This document shows positions 22,176 through 28,294 of a DNA stretch of 64,000 nucleotides, one piece after another. Origin of the DNA: Pseudodesulfovibrio profundus (lineage in GTDB: Bacteria > Desulfobacterota > Desulfovibrionia > Desulfovibrionales > Desulfovibrionaceae); the NCBI RefSeq assembly GCF_900217235.1, contig NZ_LT907975.1, positions 3,075,001 through 3,139,000 on the forward strand. The letters are read 5' to 3'. The notes below the pieces were generated by a model. The model was not told where the DNA came from. It made no database searches and saw only the letters and a program-made list of their open reading frames with translations. A program made the translations under genes and the position numbers. Numbering within the stretch: the first letter of the stretch is position 1; every line of letters begins with the position of its first letter.

Positions 22176-23443
22176 GAGACCTCTGCGCATCCCCTTTTCG
22201 CGTCCGTGCCTTGCGCTCCGCACCCAATTTGATGTTCTGACCGCACCCCAGCTTGGGCTCATTCCCGGCCTTTTCCTGCCATTTCTGGCCGAAATGCCGG
22301 ATTTTGGACGCACCTCTCCCTTCAGGCTCGCGCCAGTCGAACAGCTTTTTTCAAATTGAACGCCATGGCGAGGATGTGGAACTCTCCCTCCACCTTCTCA
22401 CGACCCACGTATCGGGACCGAAAGAATGCGTAGCCACGTTTGAGTGTGCCGAAGGCCCGCTCGACTATTTGCCGAATGCTGCTGATGTCACGGTTGCGGG
22501 TCTTTTCGAAGTCTGTCAGCCTGCCGCCACGAGGCGTCTTGTCCATGGTTCCGTCCTCCAAATCGCGATCAAACAGAATGTCCCGGTTCTTCCCGCTGCA
22601 ATAGCCCTTGTCCGCATAAACCCGTGCGCCGGGATCAAGGCCGACGCCATTCACGAGCCGCTCGAATTCGCCCGTGTCCGAATGGTTCGCGGGAGTGATG
22701 TGACCACAGAGCAGAAACCCGTCTCGACTGTCCGTCGCGGCATGGAGCTTGTAGCCGTAATAGGCCCGATTTCTCTTGCGGAGCCAGGCCGCCTCCTCGT
22801 CATCCGAATAGCTGACCCGGCAGTCCACCGGCCCATCCTGTTCTTCGGCGTCCTCGGAACGGTCCTCAGGCATCACGTCGATAACCTTGCGCGGCCGCCG
22901 CTGCGACTCGACTACCGAGGCGTCCACCACGGCTCCCTCACGGACAAGAAGCCCTTGTCCTTCAAGCTGGCGGTTAAGCATGTCGAGCAAGGAGTCCAGC
23001 ACCTTCAGGCGGATCAAACCGTTACGGAAACGGCATATGGTGGTCTCGTCCGGCACGTCGTCCTCGATGGAAAAACCGGTAAATCTGACAAAGGAGAGCC
23101 GGTCGAGCAGCGCCTGCTCCACGCCCGGATCACTCAGGTTGTACCAACGCTGCAAGAGCAGAATCTTGAACATCGCCAGAGGCGGATAGGCGGGATTGCC
23201 CACGGCGTTGGCCTTGCGCCTGATCTTCTTGCACAGAAAGGCGTTGATGGGCTGCCAGTCGATGAGTTCGTTGATCTCATCCAGAAATGTGGTCTTGGTT
23301 CTGCGGTGCCCCAGGAAGTAATCACCCAACCGAGGTCCTTTCTGCCGAATAGCCATGCCTTCCTCCTTTGGATGGAGAAATAATAGCATAATAAATCAAA
23401 TAGTTAAAGAGTAAAAGTGTGGGATTTGCCGTGCAGAGGTCTC
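22176..23443 (-). mobile_element. IS5-like insertion sequence, intact, about 1268 bp
   Basis: The element is bounded by an 11-bp perfect inverted repeat, GAGACCTCTGC at 22176-22186 and its complement at 23433-23443. It is flanked on both sides by the same 5 bases TGTTT (22171-22175 and 23444-23448), consistent with a target-site duplication. It contains one transposase gene. The terminal GAGACC start is common in IS5-family elements, though 5 bp is slightly longer than the duplications usual for that family. No second copy is seen in this window. Confidence 0.9.
22322..23356 (-). CDS. IS5-family DDE transposase
   Basis: Transposase of 344 residues from ATG 23356, which has a strong AAAGGAGGAA ribosome site. 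An N-terminal DUF772-type region (RWYNLSDPGVEQALLDRLSFVRFTGF, DETTICRFRN) precedes the RNase H-like catalytic core. The likely DDE residues are Asp in VVDASVVESQ, Asp in YADKGYCS and Glu in RQIVERAFGTLKR. The Y-(2)-R-(3)-E-like spacing in IVERAFGTLKR fits IS5 relatives. The frame is uninterrupted, so the element may still be active. Confidence 0.95.
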   Translation of the reverse strand: MAIRQKGPRLGDYFLGHRRTKTTFLDEINELIDWQPINAFLCKKIRRKANAVGNPAYPPLAMFKILLLQRWYNLSDPGVEQALLDRLSFVRFTGFSIEDDVPDETTICRFRNGLIRLKVLDSLLDMLNRQLEGQGLLVREGAVVDASVVESQRRPRKVIDVMPEDRSEDAEEQDGPVDCRVSYSDDEEAAWLRKRNRAYYGYKLHAATDSRDGFLLCGHITPANHSDTGEFERLVNGVGLDPGARVYADKGYCSGKNRDILFDRDLEDGTMDKTPRGGRLTDFEKTRNRDISSIRQIVERAFGTLKRGYAFFRSRYVGREKVEGEFHILAMAFNLKKAVRLARA

Positions 23444-25391: not shown

Positions 25392-26489
25392 ATGAGTTTG
25401 AGAGCATATTGTTCCAGCACTATGCATAACTCCATAACACAGTATTCTCGGGTTATCGATGCCGCATGCACTCGTTGCGGCAAGTGTCAGATAGGGTGCA
25501 GTTTCCTGCAGGAATATGGCCTGCCAGGTGATATCGCGCATCAATCGTTGTTGTCTGATTCACAATGTCCTGATCCATTCCATTGTTCTCTGTGTGGGTT
25601 GTGCACGGAAGTCTGCCCTGAAAAGCTGACCCCCGAGGCGCTGTTCCTGTCCATGCGGCGAGAACGGGTGCAAACCGGGATCGTGGACCTGAAACCCTAT
25701 CGTCCGATTCTGACATACGAATCGCTTGGCGAAAGTTCTTTGCTGTCCACTATCAAGATGCCGGAAGGTGGTGATACCGTTTTTTTTCCGGGATGCACCT
25801 TGTCGGGAACACGGCCGCATGTAGTGCGTCGGCTGTTCCGTTCGTTGCAGCAGGTGGATTCAAAGATCGGAGTCGCGCTGGGGTGTTGCCTTAAGCCGTC
25901 CCATGACCTGGGGAGGCAGGATCGTTTTGAAACAGGCTACGCACGATTGCTTGAGCGTTTGCTGGATAGTGGCGTCAGTCGCGTACTGACGGCCTGTCCC
26001 AATTGTTACAAGATTTTCAGTACCTATGGCGAAGGTGTGGATGTGGTGTCAGTCTATGAAGTTCTGGCGGATACAGATGTCGAGCCCTCTGCGATGAGCG
26101 GGGACGTCATTGTCCACGATCCCTGTCCCATACGCCATGCGACACCATTTCAGGATGCGGTCCGAACCCTCACACAGAAGGCCGGCCTGACACTCAAGCC
26201 GATAAAGAAGGAACGTGAGTTGACGCAGTGCTGCGGTGAAGGTGGCATGGTCGGCTTCGTGCGTCCCGAATTTGCCCGGGCATGGACGGCCAAACGCGTG
26301 GAGGCTACCAAAGGCACTCCGGTGGTGACAGCCTGCGCAGGGTGCACAGGCTTCTTGGGCCAGCACATGGATGTGACGCACATTCTGGATGTGCTGTTCA
26401 ATCCCGAGGGCAAATCAGCACATCGCCCGCCAATGACCTATTGGCAGCGCTGGAGGCTCAAGCGGTGGTTCAATCGCAACGTGGGCTGA
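25392..26489 (+). CDS. Ferredoxin-CCG domain oxidoreductase subunit, GlpC/HdrD-like
   Basis: Cytosolic iron-sulfur protein of 365 residues. Two [4Fe-4S] ferredoxin motifs come first (CTRCGKCQIGC at 26-36 and CSLCGLCTEVCPEK near 65-78). Two CCG-type domains follow: FFPGCTLSG...GVALGCCLKPS with ACPNCYK, then VHDPCPIRH...ELTQCCGEGG with TACAGCTGF. CCG domains bind special Fe-S clusters or take part in thiol/disulfide electron transfer in HdrB/HdrD, LutA, GlpC and TmcB. The partner dehydrogenase is not adjacent, so the substrate is unknown. It ends one base before the convergent hgcB stop. Whether it works with HgcAB is open. Confidence 0.85.
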   Translation: MSLRAYCSSTMHNSITQYSRVIDAACTRCGKCQIGCSFLQEYGLPGDIAHQSLLSDSQCPDPFHCSLCGLCTEVCPEKLTPEALFLSMRRERVQTGIVDLKPYRPILTYESLGESSLLSTIKMPEGGDTVFFPGCTLSGTRPHVVRRLFRSLQQVDSKIGVALGCCLKPSHDLGRQDRFETGYARLLERLLDSGVSRVLTACPNCYKIFSTYGEGVDVVSVYEVLADTDVEPSAMSGDVIVHDPCPIRHATPFQDAVRTLTQKAGLTLKPIKKERELTQCCGEGGMVGFVRPEFARAWTAKRVEATKGTPVVTACAGCTGFLGQHMDVTHILDVLFNPEGKSAHRPPMTYWQRWRLKRWFNRNVG

Positions 26490-26490
26490 C

Positions 26491-26778
26491 CTAGCAGCAG
26501 GTGTTCTTGATCTCTTTACCTGTCAGTTGATGCCACCAGATGGACATGATCAGGGAGGCGCATCCGACTCCCGGGTTCACCGAGATGGCCGCAGTCGGGC
26601 AGTTCTTGGCGCATGCACCACATTCTATGCAGGCGTCCAGGTCGACTATCTCGGCCTTTTTTTCCCGTAGCTGAAAAATCCGATGCGGACAGACGGCGTG
26701 GCACATGCCGCACCCGACGCACTCGTCCCTGTTCAATTTTAGTGTGGCGACATCCGGAATATATCTGAATGATTTCAT
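26491..26778 (-). CDS. hgcB: Mercury methylation ferredoxin HgcB
   Basis: Ferredoxin of 95 residues that supplies electrons to reduce the corrinoid of HgcA and probably handles Hg(II) in mercury methylation. Two [4Fe-4S] motifs are intact: CVGCGMCHAVCP (20-31) and CIECGACAKNCP (50-61). After the second cluster come the HgcB-specific NPGVGC with Cys73 and a C-terminal vicinal pair Cys94-Cys95 (TCC end). As I recall these three positions match the residues studied in the ND132 protein exactly. AGGATAA precedes the ATG, 9 bases after the hgcA stop, so the two genes are co-transcribed. Together with NIWCAAGKG in the neighbour, identification is strong. Confidence 0.96.
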   Translation of the reverse strand: MKSFRYIPDVATLKLNRDECVGCGMCHAVCPHRIFQLREKKAEIVDLDACIECGACAKNCPTAAISVNPGVGCASLIMSIWWHQLTGKEIKNTCC

Positions 26779-26787
26779 GCTATTATC

Positions 26788-27981
26788 CTAATTGAAAAAG
26801 GGTGCTGCAATCCAAATAAGCAGGCCGACCACGGTTGCTCCCGCCTGCCACGGCAGGGCGCGGCGCATTTCCTTCTCGACCCCGGTGGGGGATGTGAAGG
26901 GGGTGGAGCCGGTGAAGTTCATACCCAGATAGGAACTGCTGGCCACAGTCCACAGCAGAATGGCTGCCAGTTCTGCGGCACCAACGGTGTTCGATGCGTA
27001 TGCCATGAGTGGCAGGGCCATCAGTCCGCCCGTCAACGCTCCCTTGGCTGAAAAGGCCGGCAAAGGCAGGTATGGCAGGAGCAGGGGGAGAGCCACGACA
27101 CCGGCAATGGTTCCGGCCAGCGTCGACAAAGCAAATATCGCCCCACGGCTCCAGGCGGCTGAAAGGGAAAAGAAATCAGGCCCGATACCGGACAAAACAA
27201 ATCCAATGGCAATGATGGCAAGAAGCGCTCTTCCGAACTCGTGAAACTCGACCGGAATCAGCTCGGCCCGTTCTTTCAGAGTGAAGGTTACGGACCGCAT
27301 GGTTTCATCAGCCACGAGATTGTTTTCGATATAAGCCGGAAGGTCATCCGCCCGAACCGGGCCGTAGTGAACGCGGAATCCACATTCTTTTTTGACCGTG
27401 TGGGCTGCTACACCTGTGGAGCCAAGCTGCGGGAGTATCATGTCGCGGTGCTGCACGACCTCTGCAAGTCGGGAGTCACGGACGCTGCGGACCACTTCCT
27501 GAGTGGAGAACAGGCCTTTGCCTGCCGCGCACCAGATGTTGATGCCGCGGGTATCGGTGACGAGCACCCATGCATCCGTACCGTCCAGTCCTCTGCGAAC
27601 CACATCAAAGGTCAACTTGTAGTTGCCGGTGACGATGACCGGGGATTGGCTGGTCGGTGTTCCGACGCAGTACAGTCCCGGTGTCACCTTGTAATCGTAG
27701 CGTGACTGGCCGAATCGAACGGAAAGAGTTCCCATATGATCGCGAAAGGAAAGCTGTGTTGCGACGCGGGGAACGGCTCCAATTGGTGTGGAGAGAAATT
27801 CTTCGACAAACGGCTCGATGCGGTAGCCCGGCTTTTCATGGATCCCGGCACGGGGATCAGGCTTGGGGCCTCAACAGGGAGCGTCGTCGATTTCTTCGCA
27901 TGGTTGTGGCTCCAATGGAGCCATTGGGAAAGGCGGTTGTAATCCGGGCTGCATGTCAGGCTGACAACATTCGTCAGCCAT
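26788..27981 (-). CDS. hgcA: Mercury methylation corrinoid protein HgcA with in-frame TGA, candidate selenoprotein
   Basis: Membrane-anchored corrinoid protein that transfers a methyl group to Hg(II), 397 residues with Sec at 37. The start is ATG 27981 (ribosome site AAAGGA), 4 bases after the arsR stop. The leader is Cys-rich (C5, C6, C28, C36), then comes TGA at 27871-27873. The same frame goes on with GPKPDPRAGIHEKPGYRIEP and PRVATQLSFRDHMGTL, which reads as normal HgcA-type sequence. The cap-helix motif NIWCAAGKG has its cobalt-ligand Cys at residue 151. Five membrane helices fill about 252-394. No start codon exists between the TGA and the ATG at 27735 (Met83), and that ATG lacks a ribosome site. 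A SECIS-like hairpin follows the TGA. A nonsense mutation is the alternative reading. Confidence 0.9.
27841..27858 (-). promoter_or_regulatory. Bacterial SECIS-like stem-loop in hgcA
   Basis: On the minus strand GATCCC pairs perfectly with GGGATC around the 6-base loop CGTGCC. The loop's second base is G, and the loop begins 18 bases after the TGA. Both features meet the published consensus for bacterial SECIS elements as I know it (loop G in the first two positions, 16-37 bases from UGA). An outer GGCCC/GGGCT pairing (27866-27870 with 27825-27829) could extend it. Confidence 0.75.
27871..27873 (-). other. In-frame TGA, proposed selenocysteine codon (residue 37)
   Basis: The TGA is the only stop in an otherwise continuous 398-codon frame and lies directly after a Cys codon, giving Cys-Sec-Gly-Pro. 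From memory, HgcA-like proteins in other anaerobes have Cys-Cys-Gly-Pro at this place; an alignment should confirm this. Confidence 0.8.
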
Positions 27982-27985
27982 TCCT

Positions 27986-28294
27986 TTATCCAGTTTCATC
28001 GAGGATCTCCACAAGGCCGGTCGCGGCAAAGGCGTTCATGGTTGTATTAAAAGCTGCAAGTGTCTCTCTATTGATACAATAACAGGTCCTCGGTCCTTCC
28101 ACTTCTCCTTGAACCAGTCCGGCTTCTTTCAATATTTTCAGATGCTGACTGACTGTGGATTGGGCCAGGGACAGGACGGTCACTATCTTGCCGCAGATGC
28201 AGCGATCTTCTTCCATCAGATGCCGCAAAATCTGAATGCGGGCCGGATGCCCCAGCGCTTTGCAGATAGCGGCAATTTGTTTGTCCTCAAGCAT
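27986..28294 (-). CDS. arsR: ArsR/SmtB family metal-responsive repressor
   Basis: Winged-helix repressor of 102 residues. The recognition region reads LSLAQSTVSQHLKILKEAGLV (about 41-61). Cys32 and Cys34 (RCICGK) sit where ArsR proteins have the As(III)-binding CxC of helix alpha-3; Cys71 and Cys73 (TCYC) form a second pair. This suggests derepression by a thiol-seeking metal or metalloid, As(III), Sb(III) or possibly Hg(II), but the ligand is not proven. It is the first gene of arsR-hgcA-hgcB, with 4 bases to hgcA. ArsR-like regulators linked to hgcAB have been reported in Hg-methylating Pseudodesulfovibrio. A promoter and a dyad operator candidate lie just upstream. Confidence 0.9.
   Translation of the reverse strand: MLEDKQIAAICKALGHPARIQILRHLMEEDRCICGKIVTVLSLAQSTVSQHLKILKEAGLVQGEVEGPRTCYCINRETLAAFNTTMNAFAATGLVEILDETG

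What the first reader, a model, noticed from the sequence alone, without database searches (positions are those of the whole stretch)
26788..27981. hgcA has an in-frame TGA at codon 37 and looks like a selenoprotein gene
The 398-codon frame from ATG 27981 (good ribosome site, 4 bases after arsR) has a single stop, TGA at 27871-27873, directly after a Cys codon. Downstream sequence in the same frame keeps reading as HgcA-type protein (PGYRIEP, PRVATQLSFRDHMGTLSVR) before any possible restart; the first later ATG (27735) has no ribosome site. A 6-bp SECIS-like stem with G at loop position 2 sits 18 bases from the TGA. A Sec-containing HgcA would be a new form of the mercury methylase as far as I know.
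Basis: partly seen in the sequence, partly recalled or inferred. Interest (0 to 1): 0.97.

Follow-up and report, generated by a model that had tools for sequence, protein, structure and literature searches.

The report
Selenocysteine tail on mercury-methylating enzyme HgcA
The gene for HgcA, the bacterial enzyme that makes methylmercury, carries an in-frame UGA codon that is predicted to be read as the rare amino acid selenocysteine in a cysteine-bearing tail; this kind of HgcA had already been catalogued, but the tail is absent from the close database copies examined and likely from the laboratory model enzyme.

Summary
Observation confirmed: one TGA at 27871-27873, right after a Cys codon, in an open hgcA frame. 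The Sec reading is very well supported. The genome has selA, selB, selC and selD. The TGA is in 28 of 28 genomes (own included) with an HgcA-grade match, and Cys fills exactly that place in 26 more distant loci. A hairpin at SECIS distance keeps pairing, with compensatory changes that alter amino acids; as a group, Sec genes fold better there than synonymous versions and Cys genes do not. A restart at M83 would remove a beta-hairpin predicted with confidence. That this is new is not supported: a 2026 catalogue lists HgcA with a CU motif as a predicted selenoprotein. What I add: the start is more likely ATG 27999; Sec and its alternatives switched repeatedly; the tail is a predicted disordered arm with extra Cys; the database HgcA of laboratory P. 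mercurii (338 aa, Cys93) begins at window residue 59, 22 codons after the UGA of relatives, so the protein studied as full-length probably lacks the tail. Proposed role, inferred: a Cys-Sec clamp handling Hg(II) or methylmercury beside the corrinoid, like HgcB's C-terminal Cys pair.

The parts
27986..28294 (-). arsR-type regulator, first gene of the arsR-hgcA-hgcB cluster
   Evidence: NF033788 77.7 bits, over its cut-off of 55; PF01022
   Evidence: NF040863 423.6 bits, cut-off 275; translation; ribosome site read
27826..27999 (-). N-terminal tail (ending at residue 52 in the numbering from 27981), mostly predicted disordered; Cys5, Cys6, Cys28, Cys36, Sec37
   Evidence: pLDDT below 50 at residues 1-36 and 50-52 (modelled from ATG 27981); sequence
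27871..27873 (-). in-frame TGA, predicted Sec codon (codon 37 from ATG 27981)
   Evidence: conserved in relatives
27841..27858 (-). SECIS-like hairpin GATCCC / CGTGCC loop / GGGATC, loop starting 18 bases after the TGA
   Evidence: covariation in relatives; synonymous-shuffle test
27529..27531 (-). Cys151 of the NIWCAAGK motif, counterpart of the corrinoid-ligand Cys93 of ND132
   Evidence: position; role of Cys93 from passages of PMC7305189 and PMC11588087
27733..27735 (-). first possible restart codon (ATG, residue 83) after the TGA; would drop the predicted beta-hairpin 59-73
   Evidence: database entry P0002 (315 aa, 2 differences from the window) starts here
26491..26778 (-). hgcB dicluster ferredoxin; Cys73 (GVGC) and C-terminal Cys94-Cys95, no Sec
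   Evidence: NF040864 121.5 bits, cut-off 99; sequence

Best explanation
This hgcA contains an in-frame UGA that is predicted to be decoded as selenocysteine, giving HgcA a likely flexible N-terminal arm that ends in a Cys-Sec pair just before the corrinoid domain. Shown by sequence: the UGA, its conservation, the Cys alternative at the same place in other HgcA, the conserved hairpin, and the Sec machinery in the genome. Inferred: SelB bound to the hairpin delivers Sec-tRNA at the UGA, so the intact 397-403 residue protein is made. Inferred and untested: the Cys-Sec pair (Cys-Cys in other lineages) works as a soft-metal clamp that captures Hg(II) or takes away methylmercury next to the Cys151-liganded corrinoid, on the HgcA side, matching the C-terminal Cys94-Cys95 pair of HgcB; selenolate would bind mercury more tightly than thiolate and exchange it faster (recalled chemistry).
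For: Sec machinery in the same genome: tRNA-Sec 78.4 bits over cut-off with anticodon tca, SelB 383.8 bits, SelA 615.7 bits, SelD 327.7 bits, itself with one TGA, and two FdhA with one TGA each plus a third with one TGA and one TAG. TGA in 28 of 28 genomes (own included) with an HgcA-grade match among the 60 genomes (27 within one hit, G026 on a second contig piece). Of 150 HgcA-search loci, the WCA motif was found in 143; 73 carry the tail TGA after three rows were dropped (L163 and L127, whose TGA precedes an ATG; L055, a duplicate of L019), 47 carry a Cys-Cys pair in that stretch, 26 of these at exactly the position of the TGA in the window's group. Hairpin: 89.6% of cells paired against 34-69% for slid versions in 32 Sec genes, 97% against 35-57% in 20 genes of a second group; L056 (Asp to Val with Val to Asp) and L061 (Asp to Ala with Val to Gly) keep the pair by amino-acid-changing double changes. 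Synonymous-codon shuffles: mean z -0.99 in 73 Sec genes, +0.06 in 47 Cys genes, Mann-Whitney p 2.8e-6. The confident fold begins near residue 59, before the first restart codon at 83. Role: leaving out the residue next to the site, Cys makes up 3.3% (Sec genes) and 6.7% (Cys genes) of up to 36 tail residues before it, against 1.0% of the core.
Against: No protein or selenium data exist here. The window's own hairpin alone is not exceptional (z -0.99, p 0.165); 14 of 73 Sec genes reach p 0.05 singly. In A1 the two outer pairs break in 6 and 9 of 32 rows, and the shuffle control for pairs changed on both sides is reached in 38 of 500; relatedness of the rows is not removed by these shuffles. For the role: 22 of 142 distinct loci have neither TGA nor CC there (one, L068, is cut by a contig end), and some, such as L046, L158 and L170, show no Cys in the stretch printed, so the pair is not universal. 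The Cys-Cys group was picked by its Cys pair, which is why the neighbouring residue was left out of the count. HgcA numbered like the tail-less database protein (Cys93) made MeHg in E. coli lysate (passages of PMC11588087), so the tail is probably not strictly needed in vitro. The confidence given is for Sec decoding and the anatomy; for the mercury role alone I would say about 0.5.
Confidence: 0.82

Rival explanations
1. The TGA is a true stop; a short leader peptide is made and HgcA restarts downstream, as database annotation assumes.
For: The database copies looked at start after the TGA: 315 aa for the entry nearest the window (P0002) and 331-343 aa for the seven relatives fetched with it; in 16 of 32 Sec genes of the window's group the codon at +22 is GTG.
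Against: In the window the first ATG/GTG/TTG is at residue 83 without a ribosome site and would remove strands 59-65 and 68-73, which are predicted with high confidence. The position and kind of the first restart codon vary between relatives while the TGA, the residues around it and the hairpin are kept. Cys replaces it in other lineages with no TGA at the site.
Confidence: 0.04
2. Sequencing error or pseudogene.
For: A single in-frame stop is the usual mark of either; hgcA remnants do exist in the genus (G033).
Against: The same TGA in 21 of 21 genus members with an HgcA-grade match and in other families and orders; the rest of the frame is intact and scores far over the family cut-off.
Confidence: 0.01
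3. Sec is made, but the Cys-Sec pair serves redox protection or maturation (for example keeping the corrinoid or the HgcB cysteines reduced) or binds another soft metal such as arsenic, not mercury.
For: CU motifs occur in other predicted selenoproteins whose role is open, such as SaoC and MbdU (table in PMC13188914); the neighbouring regulator is of the ArsR type, and the native function of HgcAB is unsettled (recalled).
Against: The pair resembles the vicinal Cys pair of HgcB, whose double loss cost 95% of methylation (passage of PMC7305189), and selenolate has a very high affinity for mercury (general chemistry, recalled).
Confidence: 0.35

Closest known systems
Sec-containing HgcA as listed in PMC13188914 (NF040863, motif CU, WP_250697417.1; cites Zhang and Gladyshev 2008 and Haft and Gwadz 2023)
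   Same: Same family, same CU motif (table passage).
   Different: Only one table line was seen; the 2023 paper is not held and its text was not read. Its example is given by accession only. In the 2008 main text four terms for the corrinoid protein gave no hit.
HgcA of Pseudodesulfovibrio mercurii ND132 (Cys93, 338 aa)
   Same: Same corrinoid motif; the papers describe five transmembrane helices and an HgcB with Cys73 and Cys94-Cys95, as here.
   Different: The database protein P0141 starts at the counterpart of window residue 59, so it has no tail and no Sec; its upstream DNA could not be fetched.
Cys-form HgcA of Desulfosarcina alkanivorans (L038), D. cetonica (L049) and others (L021, L022, L024-L034)
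   Same: Same tail and place, Cys-Cys-Gly in place of Cys-Sec-Gly.
   Different: No TGA at the site; different residues where the hairpin lies; as a group no excess folding.
Sec-containing HgcB (NF040864, GVGU)
   Same: Partner protein with Sec at the place of Cys73.
   Different: The window's HgcB has Cys there; in my census only L044 (Natronincola peptidivorans) has U in HgcB, and it also has a TGA in the HgcA tail.

Membership tests
HgcA (NF040863) | profile score over the curated cut-off | tested here: met
   423.6 bits, cut-off 275
HgcA (NF040863) | N(V/I)WCA(A/G)GK cap-helix motif with the corrinoid Cys (motif form recalled) | tested here: met
   NIWCAAGK, Cys151
HgcA (NF040863) | corrinoid domain followed by five transmembrane helices | tested here: met
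   five long C-terminal helices at 235-396 in the model, pTM 0.77; PF03599; membrane insertion itself not tested
HgcA (NF040863) | hgcB next door | tested here: met
   26491-26778, NF040864 over its cut-off
HgcA (NF040863) | mercury methylation activity | not testable with these tools
   none
bacterial selenoprotein gene | in-frame UGA with coding sequence on both sides, conserved in homologues | tested here: met
bacterial selenoprotein gene | Cys homologues at the UGA position | tested here: met
   26 loci with Cys at exactly the same place
bacterial selenoprotein gene | SECIS hairpin just downstream | tested here: met
   for the group; the window's alone p 0.165
bacterial selenoprotein gene | selA, selB, selC, selD in the genome | tested here: met
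bacterial selenoprotein gene | selenium in the protein | not testable with these tools
   none

The most novel reading that the evidence does not exclude
The Cys-Sec arm is a third mercury-handling element of HgcAB and takes part in the second half-reaction, and the biochemistry and structural modelling of the model HgcA used a tail-less, selenium-free form because annotation stopped at the UGA.
Probability: 0.33. Interest if true: 0.82.

Novelty: new member of a known kind. Interest (0 to 1): 0.5.

Why it matters
HgcA makes the methylmercury that enters food webs, and how it handles mercury in the second half-reaction is open. A selenolate near the corrinoid would be a natural mercury ligand, would tie methylation to cellular selenium supply, and would mean that a protein begun after the UGA is incomplete. 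It also shows how gene calls that stop at UGA lose a conserved part of a well-studied enzyme.

Tried and rejected
Rejected: true stop with restart, sequencing error, pseudogene (see rivals). Rejected: Cys forms exist only because the genome cannot make Sec; of 80 phylum genomes given, selA is in 40 of 40 with Sec-HgcA and 37 of 40 without, the three misses being 62, 67 and 81% complete. Weak: plain folding energy separates Sec and Cys genes only slightly (p 0.03); RNAalifold's covariation term for A1 is small (-0.05). The Sec share of my loci is not a frequency: of 100 places without a locus I fetched 60 (all from the top 70), and the genomes are kin of the window. The tree is the quick kind without the mixture model; two rows are long.

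Full report
What is there. On the minus strand lie arsR (27986-28294), hgcA (read through TGA, to 26788) and hgcB (26491-26778). hgcA has one in-frame stop, TGA at 27873-27871, directly after Cys36. HgcA scores 423.6 bits against NF040863 (cut-off 275), HgcB 121.5 against NF040864 (cut-off 99), the regulator 77.7 against NF033788 (cut-off 55). The NF040863 match begins only at residue 70, at position 1 of the profile, so the tail with the TGA lies outside the family model.

Is the TGA read? The genome (4.2 Mb, 3 contigs) has tRNA-Sec (anticodon tca by ARAGORN), SelB, SelA and SelD, itself with one TGA. Two formate dehydrogenases have one TGA each and a third one TGA and one TAG. So Sec decoding is very likely in use there.

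Conservation. Of the 60 genomes (own included), 28 have an HgcA-grade match (130 bits or more); all 28 have the TGA: 27 inside a hit, and G026 on a second contig piece. Twenty-one of these are in the window's genus. In 395 genomes of the phylum 123 match at 1e-30, and 35 of the 130 listed places report one TGA inside the aligned stretch. I read 150 loci from the HgcA searches (L019-L079, L086-L174). The WCA motif was found in 143; 76 had a TGA 103-132 residues before it; L163 and L127 were dropped because the TGA precedes an ATG, and L055 because it repeats L019, leaving 73. Forty-seven others have a Cys-Cys pair in the same stretch, 26 at exactly the position of the TGA in the window's group, for example ...DAPC-Sec-GPKPDPRAG... 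against ...EVCC-GPPAGPPSS.... Cys directly precedes the Sec in 64 of 73, directly follows in 4, neither in 5. Twenty-two loci have neither TGA nor CC there (one cut by a contig end). The set is not a random sample.

The hairpin. In the 32 genes with the TGA at the window's position (L050 is the window's own gene), columns 16-21 pair with 28-33: 89.6% of cells are standard pairs, 34-69% when slid by 1-3 columns; 1 of 500 shuffles reaches the covariation score, but 38 of 500 reach the number of pairs changed on both sides, and the two outer pairs break in 6 and 9 of 32 rows. Two changes are telling: L056 has Val where most others have Asp and Asp where most have Val, and L061 has Ala and Gly; each pair of amino-acid changes keeps the base pair. 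A second group of 20 genes has an unrelated hairpin sequence (consensus GGCTC-AGGT-GAGCC) at about the same distance: 97% paired, 35-57% slid. With codons shuffled synonymously by each gene's own usage, the 45 bases after the site fold better than expected in Sec genes (mean z -0.99; 14 of 73 at p 0.05) and not in Cys genes (mean z +0.06; 2 of 47); Mann-Whitney p 2.8e-6. The window alone is not significant (p 0.165).

Restart. No ATG, GTG or TTG follows the TGA before residue 83, and that ATG has no ribosome site. AlphaFold (57 sequences, mean pLDDT 85, from ATG 27981) gives pLDDT below 50 for residues 1-36 and confident strands at 59-65 and 68-73; a restart at 83 would lose them. Public gene calls nevertheless restart: the entry nearest the window (P0002, 2 differences in 315 residues) starts at residue 83, and the seven relatives fetched with it are 331-343 residues long.

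The laboratory enzyme. P0141, named Pseudodesulfovibrio mercurii on a contig of 3,858,580 bases, is 338 aa and its corrinoid Cys is residue 93, as in the papers on ND132 (passages). Its first residue is the counterpart of window residue 59 (151 minus 58), and in 16 of 32 Sec genes that codon, 22 after the TGA, is GTG. P0018 has the same numbering and, by its contig length (115,928 bases), is P. pelocollis, whose DNA does have the TGA (L019). So the protein called full-length in those papers probably lacks the tail. HgcA made methylmercury in E. coli lysate, more with SAM, while purified HgcAB did the first half-reaction but gave no methylmercury, which its authors put down to Sarkosyl (passages of PMC11588087). 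The tail is thus probably not strictly needed in vitro.

Evolution. On a quick tree of 141 of the 143 core sequences (tail left out) the Sec label needs 18 changes, at least 7 forced by starred branches, against 47.3 in shuffles. Of 80 phylum genomes given, selA is in 40 of 40 with Sec-HgcA and 37 of 40 without, the three misses being incomplete: the choice is not set by lack of machinery. By pattern, an HgcB was found in 119 of the 143 loci: 115 have Cys at GVGC or its like, L044 (Natronincola, which also has the HgcA TGA) has U, and L020, L089 and L093 have DDGCGCA instead of GVGCA.

Mechanism. Shown: a tail with extra Cys (leaving out the residue next to the site, 3.3% in Sec genes and 6.7% in Cys genes; 1.0% in the core) that ends in Cys-Sec or Cys-Cys about 20 residues before the predicted fold begins. 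Inferred: a mercury clamp beside the corrinoid, the HgcA counterpart of HgcB Cys94-Cys95, whose double loss cost 95% of activity (passage of PMC7305189). That selenolate binds mercury more strongly than thiolate is general chemistry, recalled.

Known or new. PMC13188914 (passages, outline and part 2 of 3 of the reference list seen) lists HgcA with CU and HgcB with GVGU among predicted selenoproteins, citing Zhang and Gladyshev 2008 and Haft and Gwadz 2023. The 2023 paper is not held; in the 2008 main text my four terms gave no hit. PMC11588087 says that some homologues may be selenoproteins. The arsR-hgcA link is published (passage of PMC7438021). My paper searches turned up no statement that the ND132 protein lacks a Sec tail, but I saw only search listings and passages of a few papers, and most subscription papers are not in the library. 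I file this as a new member of a known kind.

Noticed in passing
25392-26489 (+): Gene converging on hgcB resembles part of NF045663 (pyridine nucleotide-disulfide oxidoreductase/dicluster-binding protein, 'near Sec'), 215.9 bits, below its cut-off of 530; it has a CCG domain (PF02754) and iron-sulfur domains.
   Followed up: no
22322-23389 (-): 355-aa frame that looks like an IS5-type transposase (by eye, recalled; no search made).
   Followed up: no
L084 (own genome C1:3616386-3619391): A third formate dehydrogenase alpha subunit has a TAG besides its TGA: possibly broken, or a sequencing error.
   Followed up: no
L044 (Natronincola peptidivorans): TGA in the HgcA tail and a TGA (U) in HgcB GVGU of the same locus.
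   Followed up: partly
L020, L089, L093: HgcB of these Sec-HgcA loci has DDGCGCA in place of GVGCA.
   Followed up: no
G033:C3:30250-30603 (genus relative): hgcA-like pieces with a TAG: possible gene decay within the genus.
   Followed up: no
L035, L092, L095, L099: Tails with three or more Cys-Cys pairs, like a metal-binding repeat.
   Followed up: partly
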